A stretch of DNA of 64,000 bases. Source: Sphingopyxis macrogoltabida. GTDB taxonomy: Bacteria > Pseudomonadota > Alphaproteobacteria > Sphingomonadales > Sphingomonadaceae. This document shows, piece by piece, positions 570 to 34,871 of the stretch. Below the pieces are notes generated by a model. That model ran no database searches, had not been told where the DNA came from, and worked only from the letters and a program-made list of their open reading frames with translations. Position numbers and translations under genes: made by a program. The stretch spans positions 747,001 through 811,000 of the forward strand of contig NZ_CP012700.1 in the NCBI RefSeq assembly GCF_001307295.1. Reading direction: 5' to 3'. Position 1 is the first letter of the stretch. The number at the start of each line of letters is the position of its first letter.

Positions 570-3500
570 TCAGGGCTGCTGCGTGTCGGTCGTCGGCGTC
601 CACAGATCGTCGTTGCCCGCGCCGGTCACCGGATCGTCGAGCAACGGCTCGCCGGTCAGCGGATCGAGGTCGCGCATCGTGATCAGCGATTGCGGCAGGG
701 TGATGCCGTCGTCGCCGTCGTCGTCGACCTCTTCCTCGATGACATCCTGCACCGGGAAGCTGTTGTGATATTCGGGTTCGGGTATCGCGAGGCAGGCGCC
801 GGTGTTGGCGATCAGACAGCCGTTGAAGCGCGAACGCTGGTCAAAGGCGTCGGTGGGAGCCTGACCGCTCGCGATGCCGTTGATCGTCAGCAGCGGGATC
901 GTATCGAGCCCGGTGACCTGTCCCGACGGGCCGAGATGGACGCCGTTGATCACGATCCGCGTGTCCGGACCCGCGGTATCGACGTTGAGGCCGAGTGCGC
1001 CGAAGGTCAGGCCGCGGCGTTCGCCGAAGTCGCTGCCGCCGCTGTTCTGGACATAGAAGCCGCCGCTGACCCCGACATTGATGCCGCCCGCGAAGAGCGC
1101 GCCTTCGTCGCTCGTGATCCCGTCGTTCTGTGCCAGCCGGTCCTCGATCGCATCGGTACTGCTTGCGGCGGCGACATCGTCGATCGCCGCGAGCGTCGCG
1201 ACGATCACGTCTTCGGAGGCGAGGTTTAACCGCCCGGCGGGCGCGCTGCTGCTGCTCCCCAAAAGGCGGATCGACGCCTCGCCCAGAATGATTTCGAGCG
1301 ACTGGTCGGCGAAGATGTTGAGGGCGTTGTTGTCGCCCATGCCGGTCAGCGCGACATCGCCGACGACGCGCGCCGTCCCCGGGGTGGCGATCGTCAGCGA
1401 TCCGTTCGCACCGAGGTTCGAGGTCGCCGACCCCGCGGTCATCGTGAAATCGTCGATCACCACATCGGGCGGCACGGTGCCGATGAAGCGCCCGCCCGAC
1501 CGGTCGACCGCAGGCGCGAAGATGCGGATTTCGGCGCCATAGACGCGCGTCAACTCGTCGGCATCGATATGATAGCCGTTCTGCGTGCCGGTGCCGCCGA
1601 TAAAGGTCTGCACCCGGTTGTCGATGTTGCGGAGCTCGAGGCTTTCGGTGGTGCCGGTGCCGACGCGGCCGGCGCTGGCGACGGCGATATCGGCCGAAGC
1701 GAGCGACATCGTCCGGCCGGTAACCGTCCCGTTGGCCGTCAGCAGCGACTGGGCGGTCGCCGACAGGATGTCATCGGCGGTTACGTTGCCGAGCGTCATC
1801 GTGTCGTTCGAGGCGAGGATCGCATTGCCGGCGTCGAGCTGGCTGACGGCAAGATTGCCGCCTGCGGACAGCCGCGCTTCGCCCGCCACCGTTCCGGTGG
1901 TGATGGCAAGATTGCCGCTGGTGGTGATGCGCGCGTCGCCGGTATCGGTCTGGAGCTGGCTGAAGATCAGATTGCCCGAACCATCGATTGTCACGCTGTC
2001 GCCGATTGCGGTCACCGGCCCGGCCGATGCGAGATTGCCGATGACGATAGCGCCGTTGCCGCTCGTCAGGCCGGTTGCGCCGCCGCCATTCAGCGCGGCC
2101 GCGGCGATCCCGGCCGCCGCGTCGAGCGACAATGTGCCGCCGGCGCCGGTCGCGGCGCGCGCGACGTCGATCGTCGAACCGGACGATAGCGTCAGGTCGC
2201 GCCCGGCGCGCATGCTACCGCCGGCGATGGCTCCTGCCGTCTGGATCGACAGGTCGCGCCCGCCGGCGAGCGTATCGACCGGATCGCCCGCAGGGTTGGT
2301 CAAGGTGGCGATATTGGCCGAGGCGGCGTTGATGATGACATCGCGTCCGGCCGTTGAGGGACTGTTGACCGCGACTGCGCCGGCGGCGTTCACCGCCACG
2401 TCGCTCGCCGCAGCGAGGTCTCCGAGCACCGCGCTGGCGCTCTGGGTCCGGATACTGCTGTCGCCGCCGGTGACGCCGAGGCCCAAGGTGGTCGCGCCGT
2501 CGAGTGTCAGCGCCGTCGCGGCGGTGAGCAAGATATCGTCGCCCGCCGACAGCCCGCCCGCGTTGATCGCGCCGCTGGCCGACGCCATGACGATATCGGC
2601 GCCATCGGTGGCGGAGGTGCCTTCGCCCGACGCGATCGTGAAGCCGCCGGTGGTCGAATAGAACAGCGCGCCGGTATCGGCGCCGGCCCCGGTGGTGCGG
2701 ACGCCCTGCGCCGTGATCGCACCATTGGCGCGAACGGTGATGTCGTCGCCCGCGGTGACGTCCGACAGATTTGCGGCCGTCCCCGCGATGGCGAGCAGGT
2801 CTTCGCCCGCTGTGCCGGCAGTGACCGACACCGCCTGTCCGGCATTGACGCCGAACATGCGGTCCGCACTGCTGTCGGTCAGCGTCGCATTGCCCGCAGC
2901 GTCGACGAACAGGTTGCCGCCGTTGGCATTCGCTGATGCGGTAATATTGGCGGCCGAATCGAGCAAGATGTTGCCCCCGGCGACGTAGGTTCCGGTCAGG
3001 TTGCCGTTGGCAAAGATCGAGATGGTGCCGCTGACATCGGCGCGGGCGACCGCAACCGTCCCGCCGCTGGCGGTCGCAAAGAAATTGGCCGCGCCGGCCA
3101 CCGAATCGGTGATCGTGATGCTGTTGCCATTCATGCTGATATCGCTGCCAGCGATTGCCGTCGCGCCGTCGATCCCTTCGGCGCCCGCCGCGGTGCCGTT
3201 TGCGGTGAGGTTGATCGTCGCTCCCGCATCGAGCGTATTGAACGCGATCGATTGCGCATTGACCGTTATCGATCCGCTGGCAGTCGAATTGCCGAGGTCC
3301 GACGCGCCCGCGGTCGTGACGTCGATATTGCCGCCGGTGATGATCGAATTGAGCCCGGTGCGGAAACTGGTCGCGTTGACGACATAATCGTCCGCCGCCT
3401 CGCCATGCGCGACGAAGACGTTGCCCGCGGTCAGGTTGATGCCGACATTGCTGCCGATCTCTTCGCCATCGGGATTGTCGCCGGTCGCATTCATGAAGGC

Positions 3501-6500
3501 GATATCGATGTCGCCGCTGCCGTTGATGGCGATGTCGTCGCCCGCGACCATGCGGTTGAAGCTGCCGCCGTCGGTGGTCGAGATGAAGATGTTGCGCCCG
3601 GCGTCCAGCGTCCCGGCGGAGTTGACCGCGCCGGCGGTCGCGATCAGGCTGATCGAATCGGCGCCGGCGACGTTGCCCACGGTTACCGAGGTACCGCGAA
3701 TGTTGATCGCGCTCGGCACGATCATGTCGCCGGTCATCTCGACCGCACCCGCACCGACGACGGTGACCGGGCCGTTAACATTGAGCGCGCCGGTCGAATG
3801 GACGCCGCCGCTCGTCGCGGTGATGCCGAGTTCCCCGGCGTCGATCGCGATCCCGCCCAGTTCGACTTCACTCGCCTCGATACGCAGCGCCAGCCCCGCG
3901 TCGGCGTCGCCCGTGAGGGTGAGCGGCCCGCCGCCGAAAAGCAGAATGTTGCGGTTCGACGTCAGCGCGCCGCCGCTGATCGCGCCGCCCGCCGTGAAGA
4001 CCATGTCATCGATCGACGATGCCGCGCCGGTGGCGATATCGCCGCCCGCGTCGAGCCGCAGCGTGAAGCCCGCGTCGAGGCGGCTGCCCGCCGCATGATC
4101 GATATCGCCGGCGGCGTCGAGGGCGATCCGGAAGCCGGAAACATCGCCATTTGCCACGATATCGCCCGCCGTGGCGGTGATGCCCACGTCGCCGGCGGCA
4201 TCGATCGCCGCGGTCGAAACCGACGGGCCTTGCAGCGTGACATTGCCTGCCGACTGGGCGACGCCGGTAAAGGTCAGCGCGCCGCCGGCGGTGACGCCGA
4301 TGTTGCTGCCATTGCCTTCGTTGTCGAGCCCGGTGCCATAGCTGTATGCTGCACCGATCCGGGCGGTGCTGCCCGCATCTACACTAACGTCGTCGCCGGC
4401 ATCAAGCTCGGCGATATTGACGTTGGTCGCGGCAACGACCGTCACGTCGTGCCCGGCGGCAAGCGCGCCGGTCGCCGATACGGCACCTGACGAATTGACG
4501 CCGATGTCGGTGCCCGCGGTCACCGCGGTCAGATTGACAAGGCTGCCCGTCAGGCTGGTAACGAGCCCCGATTGCAGCAATCCCGTCGAGGACAGCGTGC
4601 CCGCCGCACTGACGGTCAGGTTGTCGAAGGCGTTCGCGCTGTTCGCCGCGACGTTGCCGCCGGTCGAGGTCAGAACGATGTTCGACCCGTCGGGGGACGC
4701 GGTGATAATGTCGAAGCCGGTGCTGTAATCGATCGACTGGTTGTCGGGGCCGGTGCCGGTGGTCAGCAGGCCGGCTGCGGTGATCGTTCCGGGGGCCTGC
4801 ACCGTCAGGTCGTCGCCGGCGGCCAGGTTGGTCAGGTTCGCGGTGGTGCCGGCCCGGACGAGCAAATCCTCGCCGGCGCTGACGCCGGTCAGCGTCGCGC
4901 TGCCGCCGGCATTGACGCCATACATCCCGGCGGCATTGCCCGACGTCAGGGTGACGTCGCCGCCGGCATCGACGAACACGCTGGCCGCGATCGGGGTGCC
5001 GCTGCTCGAGCTTTCGAAACCGGTTGCGCTGGCCGAACCGGCGACATCGCCGCCCGCGTTCAGCGATACGCCCCGGAAGCCGTTGTAGGCGCCGTTGATG
5101 TCACTGGTTGCTTCGATGAAGACCGTATCGGCGGCATTGGCCGTGCCGATCGCGACCGAACCGGCGCTGCCGTTCGCGACGATCGACGCGCCGCTGGTCA
5201 CCGTGCCGGTGATTCCGATCTGCGTGGCATTCAGGCTAATATTGTCGCCGGCATCGATCGAGACCCCGCTGATACCGGCGGCGCCGGGCACGGTGCCCGT
5301 TGCCGTCAGGAAGACCGTCGATCCGGCGTCGATCGCATTGAAGGCGATCGACTGGCCGTTTACCGAGACGAAACCGCCGGCGGTCGAATTGCCAAGGTCG
5401 ACGGCGCCCGGCGAGTTGACGATGATGTCGCCGCCGGTGATGATCGAGTTGAGCCCGGTCTGGAAATTGCCGACGACGGCGGTGAAATCATTGTTGGCTT
5501 CGGCATGTACGACCGTCGTCGCCGCCGTGCTGCCGAGATAGATGTTCGATCCGTCCAGTTCGGAGTCGAGGCCGCTGCCATCCGTGGTCAGCGTCCCGAG
5601 CGTCAAATTGTTGCCGATGATGCTGATATCGTCGCCGGCGTTGGCACTGCCGACATCGATGAGGAAGGAATTGACGGTCAGGTCGTCGCCGCTGGTCGAC
5701 GAACCGACGCGCGCGACATTCTGCGAGAGGATGAGCGTTGACGTTCCCGCTTCGATTCCATCGACATTGATCCCGCCGTTGGAAGCATAAGCGTTGAGCA
5801 GAAGCGACGTGCCGGCGCTGAGCAAGCTGTCCGTCTGGGCGCGGATGCTGACCGCGGCGTTGATCGACATTGCGCCGCCGGCGGCAATGGTCGGCGCGGT
5901 GCCGGTGCGGAAATCGTGGCGGATATCGACTTCGTCCGCCGCCTGGATCGTCAGGTCGCCGCCCGCGACGAGCGTTCCCGCCGCCTGCGCATAGACGCCA
6001 AGCGAGCTGTCGGTGGTCAGCGACATCGCACCGGTGGTCGTGATTGCGCCGGCGTCGCCGTAAACGCTCATGAAGATGCCGGTGCTGGCGGTGTCGGTGT
6101 CGAGGTTGGTCGGCGGGGCGAGGCCCAGCGCTTCGGCCGAGAGGCTCGTCATCGCGATATTGCCCTCGGCGCGCATCTCGATGCGTCCGGCGCTGTCGCC
6201 ATTCGCGGCGATCGTCGTGGCGCCCAGGGCGATCTGCCCTACTTCGCCCGGATTGCTGAAGGCTTCGAAACTGACCCGGCCGCCGGTGGTGCCGTTGCTG
6301 CTGCCGCCCGCGCCACCCGCCCCGGTGCCGGTGCCCGCACCGCCACTGCCGCTGATGCCAGCTGTCCCATCGACGGTAATATCCACCGCGACGCCATTGG
6401 AGGTGATCGTACCCCCGTTCGCAAGCAGATGCACGGTGCCGCCGATCGCGCCGCCGCCATTGCCGCCGTCGCCGCCCTGCGATCCATCGGGGAAGGCGGC

Positions 6501-9500
6501 TGCCGATCCGTTGCCGGCATTGCCACCGGTGCCGCGGCTGCCGAGCGCGACGGTGCCGCTGGTATCGGGGCCGAGTAAAACGGTCGCGCCGCCGCTGGAG
6601 ACAACTTCCAGGGCGCCGCCCTCGCCGGTGCCGCCGTCGCCGCCGCGCGGCGCCACAGCCGGAGTCGCGCCAAACGGAATCGATCCGCTGCCGCCGTTGC
6701 CGCCGACGCCGTCGGTGACAAAATTTACCTGGCCAACCGTGGCGCTGGCGCCGGCTCCTGTCGCTTCGACGCGCGCCGTGCCGCCGCGGGCGTCGCCGCC
6801 GCGGCCGCCTTCGCCATTGCTGCCGTCGGCGCCCGTGCCGCCGAACGCGCTCGAATCGACGGCGACCGCCAGCGCTCCCGCATCGAAACCGGTCACGATC
6901 GCCTGTGCGAGGCCGCCGGTGCCGAGACCGCCATTGCCGCCGCTGAAACCGCCACCGCCGTTACCGCCGATCCCCACCGCGCCGCTGGCGATTTCACCGG
7001 CTACCGTGGGAAGAACGGAAAAATCGATCGTCGCCACGCCGCCGCGGCCTTCGCCGCCGTTACCGCCGACGCCGGTGCCGACCGGTACGCCCGAGCTGCT
7101 CGATGCAAAGACATTGCCTCCTTCGCCGCCGATGCCAGCGGCGTCGGCAACAATGCTGCCGGACGTGACCGTACCCGCGACAATGTCGATCGTCGCCGTG
7201 CCGCCGAGCCCGGTGCCGCCGTCGCCGCCGTTGCCGGGCGGATCGCCGAACGATACCGACGCAAAGATGCCGCCCGTTCCGCCAACCCCGGTCGCGGAAG
7301 CGGCCAGGGTGCCGACATCGACGGTTGCGCCATCGATCGTGATCGTTGCGGTGCCGCCCTGTCCTTCGCCGCCGCTGCCGCTCGGCACGGTCGCGGCGGG
7401 ATCGAAATTATTGCCCATGGCGCCGGCCCCTCCGAGGCCGACGGCCGACGCGACCACATCGCCGCCGGTCAACGTCCCGCCGAGCAGGTCGATCGTCGCG
7501 TTGCCGCCCAGCCCTTGCCCGGAAACGTCGGGCGCGGAGCCGCCGAACCCATTCGCGCTGATCGCCATGCCGCCAACGGCCGCGGTGCCGCCCGTCTGCC
7601 TATAGCTTGCCGTGCCGCCGCGGCCCGTACCGCTTCCCGTGCCGACGTCGCCGCCATAGCCGTCGGCGGTGACGTTGATCGCGTTTGCGGTAAAGGTGCC
7701 GCCCGCGACCGAGATCGCCATGGTCCCGCCCTGACCGTCGCCCGCGCTTTGCTCGAAGCCGGGCGCGGATTCGACATCGACGGCGGTCAGCCCGTCGGCA
7801 CCTCCCTGCAAGGTGTCGAAGGCGATCGAACTGGGGCCCGTAGGGTCGTCGAGGACCTGGATCTGGATGAAGCCGCCATTGCCGGTCGTGCTGCTGCCGG
7901 GGTTCGTCGCGCCGCCCGACACGCCGCTCGCCTGGAGGATCGTCGTCGCATTGAAATCGATGCTGCCGCCCCCGGCGGTGATCTGGATCGTTCCGCCGCC
8001 GGCGATCGAGCCGTCGGCGCTGATCCCGCTCAGCGCGCTGGCGTCGATGATCGTACCGAGGCTGACGTCGGTCGCCGCAATGCTGCCGCCGGCGGTTGCC
8101 TCGATATTGACGAAGCCGCCCTGCGCGGGACCACCAGTGCCCCGGACATTCGCGGTCAGCCCGCTCGCCAACACGTCATATCGCGACGCCGTCAGGACGC
8201 CGCTGCGCGCCGCGAGCAGATTGACCGTGCCGCCGGTGCCGCTGCCGCCGCTTTCGGAAATACTGGTGCCGAAGCCGCCGCCCGAAACATCGATTCCGAT
8301 GGCGCCGGCAACGTCGATCGTACCGGCATCCTCGGCGGAAACCGTCACGTTGCCGCCGAGACCGCTACCAAGATTTTCGCTGAACGCGACTATTCCCGCC
8401 GCGAGGAGCTGCAGGTCCGTGTCGACGTTCAGCGTTGCGCCATTGTCGGCGGTGACGTTGATCGTTCCGCCAGTGGCGTTGCCGCTCTGCCCGGTCAGCA
8501 AACTCGGCGACGAGGCGCCGCCACTCACTCCGTCCGCGGTCACGGTGAGCGAGGGAAAGGTGACTGCGACGAGCCCGCTGGCCTCGATCGTCGCAATGCC
8601 GCCGACGGCATTGCCGCCGGCGACATTTTCGGCGCCGACCGCGCCGCCGCCGCTGCCGCTGACGTTCAGGCTGGTGGCGCCGGGGTTGATCGCGGTCGTT
8701 GCATCGCCGGCGATGCTGAGGGTCGCCGATCCGCCCTGGCCGGAGCCGCCGCCCTGCGACGGGATTGTCCCGATCACGATGTCGGATATTCCGCCGCCGC
8801 CGGCGCCGAAAGCATCGATCGTCGTCGTCAGCGTGTCGAAGACGCTGGCGGCGCCTGCGACCTCGATCCGCGCCGTGCCGCCCGTGCCATCGCCCGACTG
8901 GATATTGCCGACCTGCCCCGAGCCACTGGCGCTGGCGGTTGCCGAACCGTCGGTTGCGGTCAGCGAGGCGCCGTCCTGAACGCTGATCGTTGCCGCACCG
9001 CCGGTGCCGTTGCCGCCCTGGTCAGAGGCGGTGAAGATGCCCGAGCCGCCGTCCTCGAGTCCGCCGCCCACGCCGTCGGCCGCTGCGACGATGTTGTTGC
9101 CGACAACCCGGCTGGCGACGCCGGTCGACAGATTGGATCCGGTCACGGTGATCGTGGCGGTGCCGCCCGTTCCGTCACCGCCGATGCCGGCCGTATCGCG
9201 TCCGGCAATGCCGTTCGCCGAGACGGTGACGGTGCCGACCGCGCTCGCCGAGCCGCCATTGGAAACGATCAGCGCTGCGGTGCCGCCACGACTGTCGCCG
9301 GTTGCCGCATCGACCGCGCCATCAGCGAGGATCGACAGATTGCTCGCGGAGATCTGGCCGCCGTCGACGTTGACGTTCACCGTTCCGGGCACGCCGCCGG
9401 CCGCTCCGGTCTGGATGATCAGGTCGCCGGTGGCGTTAACGGAGCGATTCGCATCGACGGTAATCGTCGTGCTCGCGTCGCCGATGAAGGTCGCGTTGCC

Positions 9501-10679: not shown

Positions 10680-10707
10680 GGCAGTCATCCTCGATGTAAA
10701 ATTCACG

Positions 10708-12522
10708 TCAGCGCGCCCGCACGCCGAATTGGGTCGTCAGCGAAACCAGCAAGCGCGGGTCGGGCCGTTCGGTCAGGAAGCCGGCCCGGTTGAGCGGCAC
10801 CGCGAGGGTCACGTCGACGCGCGCAAGAGCGCCATAGGCGACCCGCAGGCCGCCGCCGGCCGAATAGAGTTTCTGCGGATTGAGGCCCGCGAAGGCGCGA
10901 TCCTTGTTCCATACCCAGCCGGCGTCGAAAAAGGCGAAGGGCTGGAATGCGAAGCTTTTGGTATTAGCGGGAACGAACGAGCCGTAGCGCGCCTCGAGCG
11001 CGATCCCGACGCCGCTGTCGCCGATGATCGTGCCGGGGTCGAAGCCGCGTCCGACGGTGAAATTGCCGCCCGAAAATTCCTCATAGGAGAGGAGCGGATC
11101 GCTTGCCCATTGCGCGCGCGGCGCCGCGGCCAGCGTGAACAATTTTGTCGGCCGCCATTCGGCGTTGGCGTTGGCGCGGACGAGGAAAGCGTCGGGCTTG
11201 CCCTCGATACGGGTCAGCGGCACGCGGCCGGGCAGGAAACAGGCGGCACCGGTCGGGCCGCAATCCTTGCTCGCGCCGAGCGCGTTCAGTCCCTGCCGCG
11301 CTTCGACCGACGTGGCGAAGGAAAACCGCGGCTCGGCGGGGCTGTATCCGTTGCGGCCGGCGATCGATGCCGCGTCGATCCAGCCGGCGTCGGCGCGCAG
11401 GTTGAGGACGCGCAGCCGGTCGCGGTTGATCGGCACGGGGCCGAGCCCGATGTCCTGGTCGATGATGTCGATGCCGCCGGCCAAGGTCAGGCGCCGCGCC
11501 TGCGTCAGGATCAGAGGATAGGCGGCGAAGAGGCTGACGATCTGGGTGTTCGACTTGATCGGCAAGCCGGCGATGTCGGGACGGGTCCAGGCATACGTAT
11601 AGTTGGCGCCGAAGCGCAGCCCGTCGCCGCCGACACGAAATTCGTGCGCCAGCTGCAAGACCTTCTGTTCCTTGGGATCGCCGCTGACATAAAAGCTCGC
11701 GGTGGTCAGGTCGCCCAGGCCGGTCAGCCCGGCAAAACGGACGCGCGCGACACCCCCCCAGCGGCCGACGTCGTGCGATCCGAAATTCTGGATATTGGCG
11801 TCGAACATCACCGGCGTCCGCGCCACCGTGACCTCGCCGACGACCTCGCCGGGCGCGCTGCCCGGGCGCAGCGTCAGTCGGGCGTCCATTCCGGGAATGT
11901 CGCGCGCGAGCAGCAGATAGCGTTCGGCATCGACGATGTTGAACACCGGCTGATCGTCGAGCCGCGACAGGTAACGCTGGAGCAGCCCCTCGTTGGCGCC
12001 GGCATCGCCGCGGACCTCGATGCGCGTCATGCGTGCGGCGAGAATGTCGAGGCGGACGACGCCGTCGTCGATCGTCTGGGGCGGCACGCGGACTGCCGCA
12101 AGATAGCCGCGGCTGCGCAGCATGGTCGCGGCGCGATCACGAATATCGCACACCACCGACACCGGCAGCTCCTGGCCGACGCGGTCGGACCAGCTTGCGT
12201 CGAGCATCGCCGGGTCGATCCCGTCGACGGACGAGAATTGCACGCTGCGAAGCGTGATGCGGACGTTCGAAAATTCGGGATTGGCGAGCGGGCAGGGCGC
12301 GCGCTCGATACTGTCGTCGGCGGAGACGATCTGTTCGCCGGGAGGCACGGCGGGGGGCAGCACCGGCTGCTGGATTTCCTCGCGCGTCGGGATTTGCGGC
12401 GTCGCCTGCGCCTGCGCCTGCGCTGCGCCGGGAACAACGGCGGCCGCCAGTGCCGCCGAGCCGGTCAGAACGGCTCTTAACCGCCGGCAACCGGCTTTCC
12501 CCTGATCCCCCAGATACCCCAT
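10708..12522 (-). CDS. TpsB outer-membrane transporter, ShlB/FhaC/HecB family
   Basis: This is a POTRA-bearing 16-strand beta-barrel that secretes and folds the neighbouring TpsA. It has a signal peptide ending GAAQAQA, two POTRA-like domains (about residues 85-165 and 165-245) and a barrel to the C-terminus. The diagnostic loop-6 motif appears as VGRGF (about 490-495). The length of about 604 residues is usual for the family. Three starts are possible (GTG 12528, ATG 12525, ATG 12522); AAGGGG lies 5 nt before 12522. The stop is at 10708, and the tpsA frame begins within a few bases, so translation is probably coupled. A 168-bp gap upstream may hold its own promoter. Confidence 0.93.
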   Translation of the reverse strand: MGYLGDQGKAGCRRLRAVLTGSAALAAAVVPGAAQAQAQATPQIPTREEIQQPVLPPAVPPGEQIVSADDSIERAPCPLANPEFSNVRITLRSVQFSSVDGIDPAMLDASWSDRVGQELPVSVVCDIRDRAATMLRSRGYLAAVRVPPQTIDDGVVRLDILAARMTRIEVRGDAGANEGLLQRYLSRLDDQPVFNIVDAERYLLLARDIPGMDARLTLRPGSAPGEVVGEVTVARTPVMFDANIQNFGSHDVGRWGGVARVRFAGLTGLGDLTTASFYVSGDPKEQKVLQLAHEFRVGGDGLRFGANYTYAWTRPDIAGLPIKSNTQIVSLFAAYPLILTQARRLTLAGGIDIIDQDIGLGPVPINRDRLRVLNLRADAGWIDAASIAGRNGYSPAEPRFSFATSVEARQGLNALGASKDCGPTGAACFLPGRVPLTRIEGKPDAFLVRANANAEWRPTKLFTLAAAPRAQWASDPLLSYEEFSGGNFTVGRGFDPGTIIGDSGVGIALEARYGSFVPANTKSFAFQPFAFFDAGWVWNKDRAFAGLNPQKLYSAGGGLRVAYGALARVDVTLAVPLNRAGFLTERPDPRLLVSLTTQFGVRAR

Positions 12523-12696
12523 CATCACCCCTTGCGTACGATTGCCCGCGCGATCGCTCGCGACGTGCCAATTCCAAAGCGCTGCCGACGATGCGCCAAC
12601 GCGAAATTATCGACCCAAGGAAAGGACTTACCGCTCAACCCGGCGGCTGATTCGGCTGTTATCAGATGCCCCCCGTCCGTTCAATGGGCCGAATGC

Positions 12697-13455
12697 TCAA
12701 CCTCCCGCCGTATCGCCTTCGGACATCGCGTCGACGAGCCGGTTGAGCTGCGACGAACAACCCTTGGCGACCAGCATGTCGACCGATCCCTCGACGGTGT
12801 CGGGAACGCTGTCCATCTGCGCAAAGCGCACTCGCACCGGCGTCGGCAGACCCGCGCCCGACAGGCGATATTCCACGCCATATTGGACGGGCATGACGTC
12901 GGTCGGCCATTTGCGGAAATTGGCGCCGTTGACGAGCGCGACCTTTTCGATCTTGCCCGCCTGCTCGATGGTCAGCAGCTCTTCGGTATCCATGGTCGGG
13001 CGCCAGAGCAGCAGGGTCGCGGGATCGGCGACGCAGAAAGTGCCGCCTTCGCGATAGTCGAGATACCAGAGGTTGGGCGCGCGGATATCAGTCACGACCG
13101 GATTGTCGCCCCGTGTCGCCCCGCCGCGCGAGCGCATCGTCGGGCTCTTGGCGATCATCCGCGTCACCGTCGTGCCCATCGACTGGCTGACCTGAACGGT
13201 GCCGGTCGCGCCGAAGGTCCCCGGACCCGACAGGGTGCGGGTCTTCCCAGCCTGCATCAGCACGACCCTGTCGCCGTTGACGAGCGTCACCTTGTCGGTC
13301 GACTTCAATTTCGTCCCGGTCGGATATTTGCTGGCCGACGGACCGGTCGAGCGCACGACCATCGACTGGGCGGCAGCGGTGCCGGCAACCGCGACCGCCA
13401 TGATCGCGGCGGCGGCCATCCCCAGGCGGCGCATCGGCAGGTCAGGAAAGGACAT
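12697..13455 (-). CDS. Secreted protein of unknown function in the CHAT/TPS cluster
   Basis: A 252-residue protein with a signal peptide (hydrophobic segment about residues 8-28, ending GTAAAQS; the second Met at residue 8 is a plausible alternative start). After it comes a beta-rich stretch with TGTKLKSTDKVTLVNGDRV and TLSGPGTF, which reads like a FecR/SH3-type domain, but this is only an impression. A single Cys in the middle and one near the C-terminus could form a disulfide. Its start overlaps the end of the cyclase gene by 14 nt, so the two are translationally coupled. Context suggests a periplasmic helper of the sensor, the CHAT protein or the secretion pair. I do not recognise a named family with confidence. 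Confidence 0.75.
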   Translation of the reverse strand: MSFPDLPMRRLGMAAAAIMAVAVAGTAAAQSMVVRSTGPSASKYPTGTKLKSTDKVTLVNGDRVVLMQAGKTRTLSGPGTFGATGTVQVSQSMGTTVTRMIAKSPTMRSRGGATRGDNPVVTDIRAPNLWYLDYREGGTFCVADPATLLLWRPTMDTEELLTIEQAGKIEKVALVNGANFRKWPTDVMPVQYGVEYRLSGAGLPTPVRVRFAQMDSVPDTVEGSVDMLVAKGCSSQLNRLVDAMSEGDTAGG

Positions 13456-15526
13456 AGCTTTCTCCTTTTTCGGTCTTGTTCAGGCGTTCGATCAGGAACA
13501 GGACGGATGCATCCTGATCCTCTTCTTTCGCCAATGCTGTGGCGCAGGTCACATAAGCGTCCTTATCGCCCGCGGCGTGCGCAGCGACAAGCGCGGCGAT
13601 GCGGGCGCGGCGTTCGGGCGACAGGTCGGGGCGCGGGGTGAAGGTATCGACCGGCTGGGCGCGGCCGCGCAGCGTCACCCGCCCCATCGGCACCAGATCG
13701 TCGCGGCCGGACCGTGCGGCGGCTTCGGCCGAAATCAGCACCCCCGTCTTCAGGCTCTTGTTCGCGGCCTCGAGCCGCGAGGCGGTGTTCATGCTGTCGC
13801 CGAGCGCGGTGTACTGGATGCGTCCTTCGCCGCCGAAATTGCCGACGATCGCGTCGCCGACGTGAAGGCCGACGCGCGTCATTCCCAGTGGCGGCACGCC
13901 TTCGGCGAGATCGACGCGGAACTTCTCGCCCGCCTCGTACATCGCCAGCGCCGCTGCCGCAGCGCGCGTCCCGTCGTCGGGGCGGCTGAGCGGTGCGCCC
14001 CAGAAGGCGACGATCGCGTCGCCGACGAACTTGTCGATCGTCCCGCCATGGTCGAGCACGATGTCCGACAAGCGGTCGAGATACGCGTTGAGCAAGCGCG
14101 CCACGGTCTCCGGCGTCGTCGCATGGCTCAATTTGGTGAAGCCTTCGAGGTCGGTGAAGACGCAGAAGATGTTGCGCCGCTCGCCGTGCAGAGATAATTG
14201 GTCGGGGTCGCGCATGATCTGCGCCGCGACGTCGGCGGGCAGATATTTGCCGAGCGCCGACTGTGCAAAGGCGCGCTGGCGCGATCCGACGGTGCGCGCC
14301 GCCGTGCCGACCGAAGCATAGCCGAGCAACCAGCCGAGCGCCCAGCCGAACGCGGGGAGGGTGGTGGTGTCGAACCCCTGCCGTTGCAGCCAGAAGGGCG
14401 CGACGATGAAAAAGGCCATCTGCGCGAGGAAGGCGAAGATGACCCAGCGCGGCCGCATGTCGATCAGGCTGGTCAGCCCGCCGGCGGCGACGACGAGGAT
14501 GGCGAGCGCCCACAGCATCGGCGACGACAGCGGCGTCGCCCACGCTCCGTCGAGCTGCTGCGCGAGCATCAGGGCGTGCACCTCCAGCCCGATCATCGTT
14601 TCGTGCTGGCCGGTCAGCGGATTGATGAAGCGGCTGAGCGGGGTGTTGAACTGATCGGTATCGATGATGTCGCCGCCGATCAGGACATAGCGGTCCTTGA
14701 CCAGATCGGCGAAACCGGCCCGCGTTTCGGCATCCATCGGCACCGCGAAGGCATCGATCGGGATGTTCGCGAACACCGGTTCTTCCTGACCTTCGGCAGC
14801 GCGGGCGGGAAGCAGGTAGCGAATATTGCCCTGATAGTTCGCATGCGCCGCGTCGACCGGCGCGAGCGCATTGGCCATCAGCGGCGGCAGCTTCTTCGGC
14901 CGGTCGGGCCACTTTCGGATCACGCTGTCGTCATCGGTGCGGAACAGGACGCTCGTCGGCCGTGTCTTCGCCGTCCGTACATCGGCATGCCACGCTTCGA
15001 GGAACTTCTGCTGTTCATAGAAGATGGTGTTCGGATTGCTCTCCTGCTCGACATAGGCGAGCCAGGTCGGCGTTTTCATCGCACGGAGCTGCGTTTTCAA
15101 CAGGTCGTCGTCGGGGCGCGGCGAATCGAACAATATGTCGATGCCGATCGCCTTTGCGCCCATCTGGTCGAGATTGCCGAGCGCGTTGGCGAGCAAGGTC
15201 CGGTCGAGCGGCGAACGGATGCCCGTGTTGAACAATGTCTCGTCATTATAGGTGATCATGACGATGCGCTTGTCCTGTCCGACATGCGGCGCCATCGCGG
15301 TCGCACGCGCGTCGTAAAGCGCGCGTTCGGCGGCGTTGATCAGCGGCATCTGCCAGCTCGACCGCGCGATCAGCACCGCCGCGAGCAGGAACAGGCCGAG
15401 CACGACCATCCGCCACGGGCCGAGTTGTCGCACGAGCTGGCGGACGCGCTTGCGCAGCGGCACCGCGGCCGGCCGGTCGGCCGGCGCCGCGATTTCGGAC
15501 GCGGGTGCGGTCACGGTCGTCGCCAT
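13442..15526 (-). CDS. CHASE2 sensor domain - class III adenylate cyclase
   Basis: A 694-residue membrane receptor that should make cAMP in response to an extracytoplasmic signal. One membrane helix (residues 39-57) is followed by a periplasmic CHASE2 domain (about 60-330; GIDILFDSPRPDDDL is typical), then three helices (about 337-355, 361-380, 388-406). A cyclase domain occupies about 450-620. The metal-binding aspartates are D459 (FTDLEGF) and D503 (VGDAIVAFWG), the adenine-specifying residues are K499 and D577, and the transition-state pair is N580 and R584, so the domain looks active and ATP-specific. The gene starts 4 nt after the CHAT gene and overlaps the next gene by 14 nt. Confidence 0.92.
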   Translation of the reverse strand: MATTVTAPASEIAAPADRPAAVPLRKRVRQLVRQLGPWRMVVLGLFLLAAVLIARSSWQMPLINAAERALYDARATAMAPHVGQDKRIVMITYNDETLFNTGIRSPLDRTLLANALGNLDQMGAKAIGIDILFDSPRPDDDLLKTQLRAMKTPTWLAYVEQESNPNTIFYEQQKFLEAWHADVRTAKTRPTSVLFRTDDDSVIRKWPDRPKKLPPLMANALAPVDAAHANYQGNIRYLLPARAAEGQEEPVFANIPIDAFAVPMDAETRAGFADLVKDRYVLIGGDIIDTDQFNTPLSRFINPLTGQHETMIGLEVHALMLAQQLDGAWATPLSSPMLWALAILVVAAGGLTSLIDMRPRWVIFAFLAQMAFFIVAPFWLQRQGFDTTTLPAFGWALGWLLGYASVGTAARTVGSRQRAFAQSALGKYLPADVAAQIMRDPDQLSLHGERRNIFCVFTDLEGFTKLSHATTPETVARLLNAYLDRLSDIVLDHGGTIDKFVGDAIVAFWGAPLSRPDDGTRAAAAALAMYEAGEKFRVDLAEGVPPLGMTRVGLHVGDAIVGNFGGEGRIQYTALGDSMNTASRLEAANKSLKTGVLISAEAAARSGRDDLVPMGRVTLRGRAQPVDTFTPRPDLSPERRARIAALVAAHAAGDKDAYVTCATALAKEEDQDASVLFLIERLNKTEKGESYVLS

Positions 15527-15530
15527 CGTC

Positions 15531-18500
15531 TCAGCGGGCCGCCCGGCCGGCTGCCTCTCCGCTCTGTGCCGTGTTCACCGTATCGTGGAGCAGCGGCTGG
15601 CCGCCGTCGCCGATGATCGCGAAACCGGCCCAATAATAGGGATGCGAGGTCTGTTTCTCGTTCATCAGCCGCGCTTGTGTCGCCCACATCGCGTCGGCGA
15701 CGCTGGTCCCGCGCTGGGTCCCGAACAGGCCGCCGATCAGCCGCTTGGTCGCGTCGAAATCGTCGGGCGCGGGCCAGTGGCTCGCGATGACCGAGCGGCC
15801 ACCGGCGCCGATGAAGCTGCGCACCAGTCCGTCGAGCGCGTTGCCGCCGCCGCTCGCGACGCCCGCCTCGCGCGTCGCGCTGACTGAGGCGGCGCCCGCC
15901 GTGTCGCAGGCCGACAGGATGACGAGGTCGGCATCGATCTTGAGGTCGTAGATTTCCTGGAAGGTCAAAAGCCCGTCCGAACTGCTGTCACCGAACGAGG
16001 TAACCAGCGCGGGCCGCGCCGGGCAGGCGGCGCGCGGCGCGGTCACGAGGCCGTGCGTCGCGAAGTGGATGATCCGGTAATCGGCGAGGTCGGCGCGCGC
16101 CTTGACCGCCGTATCGGTAAAGGCACCGCCGGTCAGCAATGTTGCGGAATCGCGGCCCATCGCGCTGCGCGCCGTGACGAGTTCGTCGGCCGAGATCGGC
16201 CGGCTCCACTGCGCGATGTCCCATTGGCAATCGGCATCGGTGCCACCCGCGGCGCCGCGCGAGCCCAGCGAAGGCAGCGTCCCCGCGACGGGCAGGTTCT
16301 GGCCGAGCCCGAAATATTGGTTCGCCGCCGCCGATGGCGCCGACTGGCGCGCGTTGCGAAAGGCGAGCGCCGAGACGGCGGTGCTCGGGCGCGTCGAGCG
16401 GCCGAGCCACGCGATCTGGCGCATGTCGAAGGCATCGGCCTCGGGATCGGCGAGCCGCCGTTCGTAATCGGCCAGCCCGGTGTCGGCGGTTACGAGCAGG
16501 TTGATCGGCAGGCGCAGCATTGCGCCGTCGGGTTCGAAGATAAGGTGGGCGATGGCCGGCAGGCGCTCCGCGGCGGGGCCGAATAAGCCGATGTACAGCT
16601 TGCGCGCCGCGGCGGCGTCGAACGGATAGGTGACGCGGCGGCCGTTCTCGACCACCGAAATCGACGCGCGGATCGTGTCGACAGCGGTCTCCAGGTCGCC
16701 CGCGCCGATGTCCGATCGCCAGAGCTGCGCGCCGCCCTGTTCGATCAGCATCGCATAGACCGCGTCGCCGACGACGAGCATCTTGAGATAGGCCTCGTCG
16801 GGGCGCAGCACCTGCTGCAGTTCGGGAAGGTCGAGCTTGCCCGGCGCGACGACGCGATATTGCGGGAAGGCGGAGAGGGCGACGACCGTCTCGGCCTGCT
16901 GGAAGCCGAGATTGTCGAGCTGGGTCTTGAGGTCAGCGCGCAGCGCGTTGATTTCGGGGGTGACCGGCATTTGCGCCAGCCGCGCGTCTTCGATCCGGGC
17001 GCGTTCGATGTCGCGGTTCAGCGTCGTCGCCTGGCGGAACAGCCGCGATCCCTCGCTGCTGCCCGCCGACAGTTCGCGGGCGAGCACCGCTTGCGTGTCG
17101 GCGACGCCGGGGCGCACCTGCAACTGGCTGGCGACGAAGAAATCGCCGATCGCCGCCGGATCGGTCGCGCTGCGCGCCGAGAGCAGCCGGTAATAGGGCG
17201 CCATCATATTCGCCATGCCAGTGGTCGAGCGCTGCGATCCCGCAAGCGCCGCGACGACCTCACGGTAAATGCCCAGCGCCTTGTCGTCCTGTCCGTGGCG
17301 GGTCAGGAAGGCGGCATAGCGCGCGCGCGCCGAGGCGAGCGCGTTGGTTTCGGGATATTCGACCGCCAGCGCGTTGATCGATTCGAGGAAGCGCGCATCG
17401 GCGCCGGCGATATCGCCCTCCGCCTCTTCGGCGAGCGCGAGTTCGCCGAGCATCTGCGACCGCAGGCGGACGATCGAGGTGACGCGTCCTTCGCGGACGG
17501 CAATCGCATCGGCGAGCCCCTTGATCTGCGCCGCCTTCGCCGCCGCCGGATTGCCGCGCAGCCGTTCGACGGTGCCGAGCAGGTGGACCGCCTGTGCGTC
17601 GATGATCTGCGCGCGTTCGGCAGACGTCAGCCGTTCGCGGTCGGAGGTCTGGCGGATGGCGCGAGCGTTCGCGCCGCTGTTGACCCCGGCGACGATCTCG
17701 GGCGTCAGCGTGACCGCATCGCCGTTGACGCTCACCGCGTTGGCGAGCGGCGGGATCGGCGCCTGCAGCAGCGCTGCGGCGCCATCGTAATCGCGCTGGT
17801 TCAGCGCGTGGATCGCGCGGAAATTGCGGCGCAGGCGAAGCTGCACGGCGTCGCTGGTCGGGATCGCCTTGACCTCGCCGAACAGGCGTTCGGCCTCGGC
17901 AAATTCGCCGAGATTCGATTTCTGGAGCGCGCGGTTGAGCGTGAATTCGGTGGGATCGAGGTCGGCGGCCGCCTGTTCCTCGATTGCGCGGCGCGACAGC
18001 GCCTCGAAAAATTCAGCCGCCTCGGCATAGTCGCCGCTGTGGTTGCGGCGATAGCCCTCGGCCAGCGCCCGGTCGACGTCGATCGTGCCGGCGAGCGTGC
18101 GGGCGAAGCCGTCGTTGCCGCCGACCGAGGTCGTCGCCACCTTGATCACCCCCGGCACGACCCGGCGTTCGCGCACCGATTGGAGCGCAAGGTTCAGCGC
18201 GTCGCCATAGGCGGCGAATCCCTCGACGCTGTAGCTGGTGTTGCCGTCGGCTTCGATGCGCGTCGCCCATGCGACGTCGCTGTCCTTGACCGTGCAGGCG
18301 CCGCCGGCGGCGCAGACGATCGTCCCCGCGCGGCCCGCCTCGATCCGTGCCAGCGCTTCGCCCGGGGTCGAACGCAGCATGCGGACATAGCCGACCGGCT
18401 GGCTCGCATCGCGGCAGACGATCATCCACGCGCGGTCGAACATGCCCTTGATCACGCTGTCGCGCACCGTCGACTGCACTTCGCACAGCGAGCCGCCCTG

Positions 18501-18632
18501 ATCACCGATCGAAAAACTGTCGCGAAGCGTGGGATCGCCGGCCTGGGCCCGTGCGGTACCAGGTGCGGCCGCCGCCAGCATTGCCAGCGGCGCCAGAAAA
18601 TACGCCAGAAGAGCCGGGCGTCGAGCCATCAT
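15531..18632 (-). CDS. Exported TPR-CHAT caspase-like protease
   Basis: A protein of about 1033 residues. I place the start at ATG 18632 (a second ATG follows at 18629), preceded by a GGGGGA motif; the frame is open further upstream but looks non-coding there. The N-terminus is a signal peptide (MARRPALL then a hydrophobic stretch ending TARAQA). The middle carries TPR-like helical repeats (about 180-500). The C-terminal CHAT domain has the separase/caspase-type dyad: His at about 860 in HFATHG and Cys at about 909 in LSACDT, followed by the conserved SHW segment. CHAT proteins cleave or sense partner proteins. A signal peptide puts this one in the periplasm or beyond. It is the first gene of the cluster leading to the TPS exoprotein. 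Confidence 0.9.
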   Translation of the reverse strand: MMARRPALLAYFLAPLAMLAAAAPGTARAQAGDPTLRDSFSIGDQGGSLCEVQSTVRDSVIKGMFDRAWMIVCRDASQPVGYVRMLRSTPGEALARIEAGRAGTIVCAAGGACTVKDSDVAWATRIEADGNTSYSVEGFAAYGDALNLALQSVRERRVVPGVIKVATTSVGGNDGFARTLAGTIDVDRALAEGYRRNHSGDYAEAAEFFEALSRRAIEEQAAADLDPTEFTLNRALQKSNLGEFAEAERLFGEVKAIPTSDAVQLRLRRNFRAIHALNQRDYDGAAALLQAPIPPLANAVSVNGDAVTLTPEIVAGVNSGANARAIRQTSDRERLTSAERAQIIDAQAVHLLGTVERLRGNPAAAKAAQIKGLADAIAVREGRVTSIVRLRSQMLGELALAEEAEGDIAGADARFLESINALAVEYPETNALASARARYAAFLTRHGQDDKALGIYREVVAALAGSQRSTTGMANMMAPYYRLLSARSATDPAAIGDFFVASQLQVRPGVADTQAVLARELSAGSSEGSRLFRQATTLNRDIERARIEDARLAQMPVTPEINALRADLKTQLDNLGFQQAETVVALSAFPQYRVVAPGKLDLPELQQVLRPDEAYLKMLVVGDAVYAMLIEQGGAQLWRSDIGAGDLETAVDTIRASISVVENGRRVTYPFDAAAARKLYIGLFGPAAERLPAIAHLIFEPDGAMLRLPINLLVTADTGLADYERRLADPEADAFDMRQIAWLGRSTRPSTAVSALAFRNARQSAPSAAANQYFGLGQNLPVAGTLPSLGSRGAAGGTDADCQWDIAQWSRPISADELVTARSAMGRDSATLLTGGAFTDTAVKARADLADYRIIHFATHGLVTAPRAACPARPALVTSFGDSSSDGLLTFQEIYDLKIDADLVILSACDTAGAASVSATREAGVASGGGNALDGLVRSFIGAGGRSVIASHWPAPDDFDATKRLIGGLFGTQRGTSVADAMWATQARLMNEKQTSHPYYWAGFAIIGDGGQPLLHDTVNTAQSGEAAGRAAR

Positions 18633-18843
18633 TACGCAATCCCCCAAACACAAGCTTGGGCACCCGCCGATGATTACGGCAAGACCCAGTGTATCAACGT
18701 TGCGGTGCGACCCATTCCCGTGTGCGGCGGACCCTAAACCCTTCGCATTAAAAAGGGAAGTGATCTGCGGCACAGGCAGCTTGCTTCGCCGGGGCGGGCA
18801 ACCTATCTGCAATGGACCGGCAGATTTTTGCGAAGAGGACGAG

Positions 18844-34676: not shown

Positions 34677-34871
34677 CGCCAATATGTGGCATCGCCGGGC
34701 CCAAAGAAAAAGGGCCGCTGAGAAAAGAAGCGCGGGACCGCGATCTCGGAGTGCCTTGCCCCGCCGACTGCCGACTTTCGCCGAGATCCTTTTCCTATAA
34801 ATATCTGCGCCTGTGAGGCATCTCACATCACATTCGGCGCGAGTTGGCTATTTCAACCCTGCGACCCGGAA

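What the first reader, a model, noticed from the sequence alone, without database searches (positions are those of the whole stretch)
570..18632. A CHAT protease, CHASE2-cyclase and two-partner secretion genes in one transcriptional unit
Five consecutive minus-strand genes combine an exported caspase-like CHAT protein, a membrane adenylate cyclase with a periplasmic sensor, a secreted protein, and a TpsB/TpsA pair. Spacing is 4 bp, a 14-bp overlap, 168 bp and a near-zero junction. From memory, CHAT, CHASE2 and haemagglutinin genes also cluster in cyanobacteria, so a conserved module is plausible. My inference is that an envelope signal drives cAMP output while the CHAT protein processes or guards the giant exoprotein. 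I do not know of an experimental description of this combination.
Basis: partly seen in the sequence, partly recalled or inferred. Interest (0 to 1): 0.78.

Follow-up and report, generated by a model that had tools for sequence, protein, structure and literature searches.

The report
cAMP-sensor, CHAT-protease and exoprotein gene set
Five neighbouring genes for a giant cell-surface protein, its outer-membrane pore, an apparently exported caspase-like protein, a membrane cAMP-making sensor and a small secreted partner form a conserved set in many alphaproteobacteria, with a looser version in cyanobacteria, and their distribution suggests that they work together.

Summary
The five minus-strand genes and all four junctions are as described. 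The order CHAT, CHASE2-cyclase, secreted protein (SEC), TpsB, TpsA is present in 46 of 52 loci, mostly Sphingopyxis; three of the other six are cut by contig ends. The locus joins two separable units: CHASE2-cyclase+SEC, and TpsB+TpsA+CHAT. In 118 genomes of the window's order, 18 of 18 strong SEC hits lie beside a CHASE2 gene. All 16 SEC genomes also carry a CHAT-TPS unit, although in 10 the units are apart; 1 of the other 102 genomes has one (Fisher p=4e-9 among the family's 35 genomes, not corrected for phylogeny). New features: a four-cysteine CHAT N-terminal domain found only in TPS-linked CHATs (16 of 16 hits) and a TpsA C-terminal motif in 20 of 25 CHAT-linked against 0 of 16 control TpsAs. 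CHAT dyad and cyclase motifs are intact. Closest tested precedent: S. meliloti NsrA-CyaK. Unexpected: a predicted multihaem electron chain with a cyclic-nucleotide-binding dehydrogenase clusters with the set. CHAT cleaving TpsA, and what the cyclase senses, remain inference.

The parts
15531..18632 (-). CHAT protein, 1033 aa: apparent signal peptide, N-terminal domain with four invariant Cys (C50, C73, C107, C113), TPR-like helices, C-terminal CHAT domain with His860/Cys909
   Evidence: AlphaFold model mabb0bc8cd243 (mean pLDDT 75), best Foldseek match TPR-CHAT 7y8t E 2e-12 but low TM-scores (0.30/0.42). Signal peptide read by eye, not by a predictor.
13442..15526 (-). CHASE2 receptor fused to a class III nucleotidyl cyclase, 694 aa
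   Evidence: Pfam; cyclase motifs at residues 457, 498 and 572; aligned to solved cyclases 6fht, 2w01, 1wc0/1wc1
12697..13455 (-). SEC, 252-aa protein with apparent signal peptide, partner of the CHASE2 cyclase; no Pfam family over cut-off; two invariant Cys (C141, C233)
   Evidence: 18 of 18 strong family hits in 118 genomes lie beside a CHASE2 gene
10708..12528 (-). TpsB (ShlB/FhaC-type Omp85 transporter), 606 aa
   Evidence: ShlB, Omp85 and POTRA_2 hits
570..10706 (-). TpsA, 3378-aa predicted secreted exoprotein; no toxin or effector domain in the Pfam, NCBIfam or PADLOC scans
   Evidence: TPS domain below cut-off in the window copy; close relatives are found by a home-made TPS profile seeded with them and with a PF05860-positive cyanobacterial TpsA
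612..635 (-). TpsA C-terminal tail motif DPVTGAGN (residues 3358-3365), conserved in CHAT-linked TpsAs
   Evidence: 20 of 25 CHAT-linked and 0 of 16 control TpsAs; shuffled tails 0.1% (pattern chosen after seeing the tails)
18759..18774 (-). CRP-like half-symmetric site upstream of the CHAT gene, in the gap shared with a divergent gene; function unproven
   Evidence: Found with up to 3 mismatches in 28 of 28 upstream regions (window plus 27 of the 46 loci); the window alone is at chance level; not general in other units

Best explanation
A surface-secretion unit coupled to an envelope sensor. TpsB puts the giant TpsA on the cell surface. The exported CHAT protein, through its four-cysteine N-terminal domain and TPR helices, binds TpsA (candidate site: the conserved C-terminal tail motif) and/or SEC, and its His/Cys protease processes or clears it. 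SEC is the periplasmic partner of the CHASE2 ectodomain. The CHASE2 cyclase reports the state of this surface system, or a ligand that it captures, as cytosolic cAMP. Shown: gene order, intact catalytic residues, SEC-CHASE2 adjacency, joint presence of the two units when apart, CHAT-domain and TpsA-tail conservation. Inferred: export of CHAT and SEC, all protein contacts, any cleavage, direction of signalling, target of cAMP.
For: Five-gene order in 46 of 52 loci. The same five families in other orders in Niveispirillum (TpsB-TpsA-CHAT-SEC-CHASE2) and G059 (CHAT-SEC-CHASE2-TpsB-TpsA). CHAT within 20 kb of ShlB in 19 of 47 hits (about 0.9 expected, rough), CHASE2 in 16 of 59 (about 1.2). SEC genomes all have CHAT-TPS: 16 of 16; 1 of the other 102 has it; presence varies in step inside genera g1, g3, g6, g12, g15, and g4 except G025. 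Of 20 SEC loci from the class, 16 have CHASE2 and 8 have CHAT. N-terminal domain only in TPS-linked CHATs. His860 and Cys909 invariant in 19 aligned CHATs. Precedent: S. meliloti cyaK lies directly beside nsrA, whose FecR-TPR-barrel product is required for CyaK cAMP signalling.
Against: CHASE2-SEC and CHAT-TPS are apart in 10 of 16 genomes of the order. The TpsA motif and the CHAT N-terminal domain largely mark one clade, and other TpsA clades have their own conserved tails, so the motif need not be a CHAT site. Niveispirillum TpsA lacks the motif although its CHAT has the four Cys. Three TPS-linked CHATs (G059, two in G065) show no N-terminal-domain hit. In some cyanobacterial plasmids CHASE2 and CHAT lie together without an annotated TPS gene. 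Four of 20 class-level SEC loci show no CHASE2. SEC shows no significant relation to FecR or DUF928 and no clear known fold. No general CRP site was found. Co-occurrence was not corrected for phylogeny.
Confidence: 0.5

Rival explanations
1. CHAT is the signal converter: it acts on SEC or on the CHASE2 ectodomain, so that proteolysis gates the cyclase, and TpsA is a downstream product or the stimulus.
For: CHAT is present in 8 of 20 class-level SEC loci, in 6 of them as the run CHAT-SEC-CHASE2, while TPS genes are seen in 3 of those stretches (several stretches are cut). In cyanobacterial plasmids CHAT, DUF928 and CHASE2 occur together without an annotated TPS gene (that annotation is incomplete).
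Against: In 13 CHAT hits in the order, CHAT sits near ShlB and no CHASE2 lies within 20 kb, and the CHAT N-terminal domain tracks the TPS linkage.
Confidence: 0.25
2. The set serves a transenvelope electron-transfer chain: cAMP from the CHASE2 cyclase binds the cyclic-nucleotide domains of a dehydrogenase that feeds cytochrome b, periplasmic multihaem cytochromes and an outer-membrane cytochrome complex; TpsA and CHAT build or police its surface part.
For: Dehydrogenase (two cNMP domains) and a ~620-aa partner protein occur in the same 16 of 118 genomes, 14 shared with the 16 SEC genomes (Fisher 5e-6 in the family). SEC or CHAT lies within 40 kb of one of them in 11 of the 16 SEC genomes. In G100 all lie in about 32 kb. 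The dehydrogenase, b-type and 10-haem genes lie about 5-11 kb beyond TpsA in the window's own genome. G105 has a CHASE2-cyclase within the cluster.
Against: G103 and G112 have SEC and CHAT-TPS but not the chain; G019 and G105 have the chain but not SEC; 5 of 16 SEC genomes show no such neighbour. Extracellular transfer is not shown: the outer-membrane role of the 620-aa protein is inferred from its C-terminus only and it has no Pfam hit. The b561-like hit is below cut-off. Clustering may reflect general co-location.
Confidence: 0.2
3. No functional link: two units share a genomic neighbourhood and are inherited or lost together as accessory DNA.
For: The two units are often apart; Pfam-level CHAT and CHASE2 are mostly away from TPS; in 12 Sphingobium plasmid records CHAT and CHASE2 lie next to each other, the full set being seen in the one record examined.
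Against: Co-presence persists when the units lie apart (10 of 16 genomes), varies in step within genera, and the families also cluster in another order (Niveispirillum) and another phylum.
Confidence: 0.15
4. An anti-phage or cell-death system: a Pycsar-like cyclase with a CHAT death protease and a contact-dependent toxin.
For: The cyclase domain matches PADLOC Pycsar cyclase models, best E 9e-33; CHAT proteases act in Craspase (listing).
Against: The match covers only the class III cyclase domain; no PADLOC hit at E<=0.01 for the other four proteins; the cyclase has a CHASE2 receptor and CHAT looks exported; TpsA has no recognised toxin domain. The set is widespread in Sphingopyxis records, although one of six genomes of the window's genus in the survey (G088) lacks both units.
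Confidence: 0.04

Closest known systems
Sinorhizobium meliloti NsrA-CyaK-Clr (CHASE2 adenylate cyclase signalling)
   Same: CHASE2-class III cyclase (29% identical to the window protein over residues 89-630) encoded directly beside an envelope protein; a FecR-domain protein is encoded near the sister cyclase CyaD1 (passages, PMC5498481). OM receptor to cAMP logic shown experimentally (passages, PMC7529298, PMC13001267).
   Different: NsrA carries FecR and TPR domains and a beta-barrel (literature), and is not a TPS pair; no CHAT or TPS gene is annotated within 10 kb; SEC is not a recognisable FecR protein.
Two-partner secretion (type Vb) FhaB/FhaC family
   Same: TpsB with POTRA_2 and ShlB domains; giant adjacent TpsA
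   Different: Linked CHAT protein and cyclase-sensor pair; a C-terminal tail motif not found in 16 control TpsAs.
TPR-CHAT proteases (Craspase Csx29) and separase
   Same: TPR-like helices plus CHAT with His/Cys dyad; among the best fold matches of the model, with low TM-scores
   Different: Apparent signal peptide and a four-Cys N-terminal domain; linked to secretion genes, with no CRISPR link seen.
Cyanobacterial CHASE2-DUF928-CHAT(-FHA) clusters
   Same: CHASE2 receptor, a small protein of similar size, CHAT and sometimes TpsA/TpsB together
   Different: In the one tested case the CHASE2 output is a histidine kinase; DUF928 and SEC are not detectably related.
FecR / CHASE2-EAL / TpsB divergent loci of the window's order
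   Same: CHASE2 receptor, secreted FecR-domain protein and a TpsB together (EAL in L065, L066, L067; FecR in L065, L067, L068)
   Different: c-di-GMP phosphodiesterase output and another TpsB subfamily; no CHAT and no TpsA-like ORF found in 5 of 5 loci examined.

Membership tests
Two-partner secretion (type Vb) | TpsB with ShlB barrel and POTRA domains | tested here: met
   ShlB 59 bits and POTRA_2 27 bits, both over cut-off
Two-partner secretion (type Vb) | TpsA with N-terminal TPS domain | tested here: inconclusive
   Window copy below the Pfam cut-off (19.6 of 33.5 bits); of four relatives two over it, two without a hit
Two-partner secretion (type Vb) | TpsB-dependent export of TpsA | not testable with these tools
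   Needs secretion assay
CHAT protease | CHAT domain | tested here: met
   PF12770 160 bits
CHAT protease | His/Cys catalytic dyad | tested here: met
   H860 and C909 invariant in 19 aligned proteins; identity of the dyad recalled from the family
CHAT protease | Proteolytic activity | not testable with these tools
   Needs biochemistry
CHASE2 class III adenylate cyclase (CyaK-like) | CHASE2 ectodomain fused to Guanylate_cyc domain | tested here: met
CHASE2 class III adenylate cyclase (CyaK-like) | Complete class III catalytic motif (metal, adenine, transition-state residues) | tested here: met
   Motifs present in the window; 55 of 60 family ORFs match one strict pattern, the 5 misses being two incomplete frames (L059, L060), two PVC proteins and L063; residue roles recalled
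CHASE2 class III adenylate cyclase (CyaK-like) | Adjacent outer-membrane receptor like NsrA | tested here: not met
   Neighbours are CHAT, SEC and TpsB, no FecR-TPR-barrel fusion in the locus; works like, not shown to be a member of, NsrA-CyaK
FecR-domain proteins (for SEC) | PF04773 match | tested here: not met
   No FecR hit in 13 members at E<=5; profile comparison probability 2%
DUF928 (for SEC) | Profile similarity | tested here: not met
   hhalign probability 0.2%
Pycsar anti-phage system | Cyclase beside a Pycsar effector | tested here: not met
   Only the shared cyclase domain matches; no PADLOC model hit in the other four proteins; neighbours beyond the five genes were not scanned

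The most novel reading that the evidence does not exclude
One undescribed envelope system of alphaproteobacteria: a TPS exoprotein with a C-terminal tag read by a dedicated exported CHAT protease, whose state is passed by SEC to a CHASE2 cyclase, and whose cAMP directly gates a cyclic-nucleotide-binding dehydrogenase that feeds a multihaem electron conduit across the envelope.
Probability: 0.15. Interest if true: 0.88.

Novelty: new variant of a known kind. Interest (0 to 1): 0.64.

Why it matters
CHAT proteins are known mainly from CRISPR and cell-death contexts (recalled; Craspase in listing). Here an apparently exported lineage with its own N-terminal domain is tied to protein secretion and to a cAMP sensor across alphaproteobacteria, with a related grouping in cyanobacteria. 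It gives a concrete substrate hypothesis (TpsA tail or SEC), names a partner for the CHASE2 receptor domain, and connects to the experimentally studied CHASE2-cyclase pathway of S. meliloti. If the electron-chain link holds, it would be a direct route from envelope sensing to redox control by cAMP.

Tried and rejected

cAMP feedback through a CRP site: present with up to 3 mismatches in 28 of 28 upstream regions, the window and the 27 of 46 loci whose CHAT start was clear. But the window on its own holds such sites at chance level (8 found, 10.6 expected), and upstream of other units it is present with <=2 mismatches in only 1 of 11 (CHASE2-SEC), 2 of 6 (CHAT first) and 1 of 9 (TpsB first), against about 4% of random 250-mers. 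Left open, not used as support.

A motif-based TpsA finder was too strict and was replaced by a profile. The TpsA tail motif as proof of CHAT cleavage was rejected: the positives largely form one clade, 7 of the 20 are closely related Sphingopyxis copies, and the pattern was written after seeing the tails.

Limits of the surveys: the genome search scores only part of its first-look candidates for profile and protein queries (at most 22-30 per genome, 7), so absences there are not proof and the class-level count is a lower bound.

Papers seen. Passages only: PMC8195603, PMC3501461, PMC5498481, PMC7529298, PMC13001267. All others as search listings only. 'No description found' rests on searches of an open-access library: CHASE2 with two-partner secretion, CHASE2 with CHAT domain and hemagglutinin, and CHAT domain with DUF928 gave 0 papers. 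In one search the 12 listed of 288 papers had no 'CHAT domain' occurrence; the rest of the 288 were not seen. One search listed 3 papers, one of which gave the S. meliloti lead. One search (DdvA with anti-sigma and CHAT) gave 0. One search (electron chain in sphingomonads) listed 4 papers, none opened.
Full report
WHAT IS THERE. Five minus-strand genes occupy 570-18632: CHAT (15531-18632), CHASE2-cyclase (13442-15526), a 252-aa protein with an apparent signal peptide here called SEC (12697-13455), TpsB (10708-12528) and TpsA (570-10706). Spacings are 4 bp, 14-bp overlap, 168 bp and 1 bp. Pfam confirms CHAT, CHASE2 plus Guanylate_cyc, and ShlB plus POTRA_2. TpsA's TPS domain is below cut-off in this copy; of four relatives tested, L071 and L083 are over it and L064 and L084 show no TPS hit. 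No terminator-like site was found in the 168-bp gap.

CONSERVATION. A scan with the cyclase found 52 loci. tblastn finds all five genes, in the same order and strand, in 46 of 52. Of the other six, three are cut by contig ends (L040, L047, L060); L056 has CHASE2-SEC only; L061 and L062 are distant PVC-group cyclases. The 46 are mostly records named Sphingopyxis, some less precisely named, plus Croceicoccus (about 50% identity). Sphingobium herbicidovorans carries the same order on a large plasmid, with a Crp/Fnr gene just upstream (its TpsA is annotated hypothetical and was recognised by profile).

TWO UNITS. In 118 genomes drawn from the window's order, CHAT has 47 hits (two under the Pfam cut-off), 19 within 20 kb of ShlB (about 0.9 expected under a rough uniform model); CHASE2 has 59 hits, 16 within 20 kb of ShlB (about 1.2 expected); 6 CHAT hits lie within 20 kb of CHASE2, and all 6 also lie near ShlB. 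Thirteen CHATs lie near ShlB without CHASE2. SEC has 18 strong hits in 16 genomes, and 18 of 18 lie beside a CHASE2 gene on the same strand, two of them as second tandem copies (one further weak hit in G116 was not counted). Only 7 of the 18, in 6 genomes, lie in a CHAT-TPS locus. So SEC belongs with the CHASE2 cyclase, and this CHAT with the TPS genes.

THE UNITS TRAVEL TOGETHER. All 16 SEC genomes have a CHAT-TPS unit (CHAT within 20 kb of ShlB). Of the other 102 genomes only G025 has one. In 10 of the 16 the two units are apart: in nine by more than 20 kb or on different contigs, in G100 by about 20 kb. Fisher p is 4e-9 within the 35 genomes of the window's family, without phylogenetic correction. 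Presence and absence vary inside six genera; the units change together in five of them, and in the sixth except for G025. In L116, L118 and L056 the CHASE2-SEC pair sits beside a gene that I read by eye as cysS; in L054, L064 and the window's genome the full set lies beside it, as if the units had been brought together, or split, at one address.

WIDER DISTRIBUTION. SEC occurs in at least 34 of 337 genomes of the class, 28 genera. I fetched 20 of the 37 listed hits from outside the order. 16 have a CHASE2 gene, 14 of these within 250 bp of SEC, and 4 have none; 8 have CHAT (one weak), 6 as CHAT-SEC-CHASE2; TPS genes were seen in 3. In cyanobacterial plasmids, Pseudanabaena ABRG53f has ShlB-CHASE2-FHA-CHAT-DUF928, where the CHASE2 protein is a histidine kinase. 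Of 8 further CHASE2-seeded plasmid neighbourhoods, chosen from 40 listed rows, 4 have an annotated CHAT, 3 an annotated FHA and 4 an annotated DUF928 within 11 kb; Pseudanabaena 7367 and G. verrucosa show none of these. CHAT-seeded neighbourhoods without annotated CHASE2 or TPS also exist, for example Anabaena 90, Nostoc UHCC 0302 and Leptolyngbya, and the CHAT hits of Pseudosulfitobacter and Agrobacterium vitis have no such annotated neighbours.

PROTEIN ANATOMY. CHAT: His860 and Cys909 are invariant in 19 aligned proteins, and so are four N-terminal cysteines, C50, C73, C107 and C113 (cut or divergent copies L063, L073, L074 and L081 were not in that alignment). In the window protein these are the only Cys before residue 802, which suggests two disulfides in an exported domain. 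A profile of that domain finds 16 hits in 118 genomes, all 16 in TPS-linked CHATs and none in the 28 unlinked CHAT hits; three TPS-linked CHATs (G059 and two of G065) show no hit. The AlphaFold model (mean pLDDT 75) matches TPR-CHAT of Craspase, the anti-sigma factor DdvA and separase by Foldseek E-value, with low TM-scores. Cyclase: catalytic motifs are intact. TpsA: a short motif (window: DPVTGAGN) occurs once per positive protein, 17-41 aa from the C-terminus, in 20 of 25 complete CHAT-linked TpsAs and in 0 of 16 complete TpsAs from ShlB loci without CHAT. The controls are 20 of the 29 ShlB hits near neither CHAT nor CHASE2; 4 of those 20 loci gave no complete TpsA. Seven of the 20 positives are Sphingopyxis copies; without these it is 13 of 18. 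Misses: L063, L073, L074, L083, L085. The motif largely follows one clade, and other TpsA clades have their own conserved tails, so it is a lead, not proof.

PRECEDENT. The nearest experimentally studied relative found is CyaK of S. meliloti (29% identity). On pSymB the cyaK gene directly follows nsrA. NsrA carries FecR and TPR domains by Pfam, with a beta-barrel from the literature, and is needed for CyaK cAMP signalling to Clr (passages of PMC7529298 and PMC13001267). A FecR-domain protein, SMc02177, is encoded near cyaD1, but the authors' data did not support a role in signal perception (passages of PMC5498481). The window's order also has FecR/CHASE2-EAL/TpsB loci. The recurring theme is a CHASE2 receptor with a small secreted protein and an outer-membrane barrel, with a variable output domain.

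UNEXPECTED LINK. In 6 of 11 stretches around CHASE2-SEC pairs that are not in a CHAT-TPS locus, multihaem cytochrome genes follow (L056, L068, L119, L121, L123, L124; not in L116, L117, L118, L120, L122). A dehydrogenase with two cyclic-nucleotide domains and Fe-S sites and a ~620-aa protein from that cluster each occur in the same 16 of 118 genomes. 14 of these are SEC genomes; G103 and G112 have SEC only, G019 and G105 the chain only (Fisher 5e-6 in the family). SEC or CHAT lies within 40 kb of one of them in 11 of 16 SEC genomes. The cluster holds the dehydrogenase, a cytochrome-b561-like protein (hit below cut-off), a 10-haem protein, a metallophosphoesterase, a 4-haem cytochrome, an HbpS-like protein, the ~620-aa protein and a 1300-1500-aa protein with 7-10 haem motifs. 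G100 has all of this and both units in about 32 kb. In the window's genome the dehydrogenase part lies about 5-11 kb beyond TpsA, the other part at 4.0 Mb. This suggests, but does not show, a redox function under cAMP control. The genome has nine cNMP-binding matches, two of them in this dehydrogenase.

VERDICT. The mechanism is a reasoned proposal: SEC-CHASE2 sensing is moderately likely, CHAT acting on TpsA or SEC is plausible, and the electron-chain link is a testable surprise.

Noticed in passing
window 34812-34827: A perfect TGTGA-N6-TCACA CRP-type site, far from the five genes.
   Followed up: no
G000:C1:570000-588000 (L007, CHAT at 7996-10830 minus): A second CHAT protein in the same genome, TPR-rich, with no hit for the four-Cys N-terminal domain and no ShlB within 20 kb.
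   Followed up: partly
L085 (Sphingomonas parapaucimobilis plasmid) 1-29653: A TpsB-TpsA-CHAT unit plus a CPBP intramembrane protease gene lies inside a type VI secretion gene cluster.
   Followed up: no
L065, L066, L067 (also L008 in the own genome): CHASE2-EAL proteins, in L065-L067 divergent from a TpsB gene, with FecR found in L065 and L067; no TpsA-like ORF in these stretches.
   Followed up: partly
L125-L138, L010 1771-7923, L131: A multihaem cytochrome cluster with a cyclic-nucleotide-binding dehydrogenase and an HbpS-like protein in genomes of the window's family; one literature search listed nothing on it.
   Followed up: partly
L096, L097, L101, L104 and L098, L105, L106, L109: Control TpsAs seem to have conserved C-terminal tails of their own (basic ...RN/RH ends; PL/SxFLxGxW-like ends), read by eye, suggesting that TpsA tails are generally under constraint.
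   Followed up: no
L046, L059, G112 CHAT: Broken or fused reading frames in a few copies of the set, possibly assembly errors; left as they are.
   Followed up: no
model mabb0bc8cd243 against 8rw5/8rot: The CHAT model's second-best fold match by E-value is the transmembrane anti-sigma factor DdvA, a possible link between extracytoplasmic CHAT-like folds and signalling (a paper search gave nothing).
   Followed up: partly
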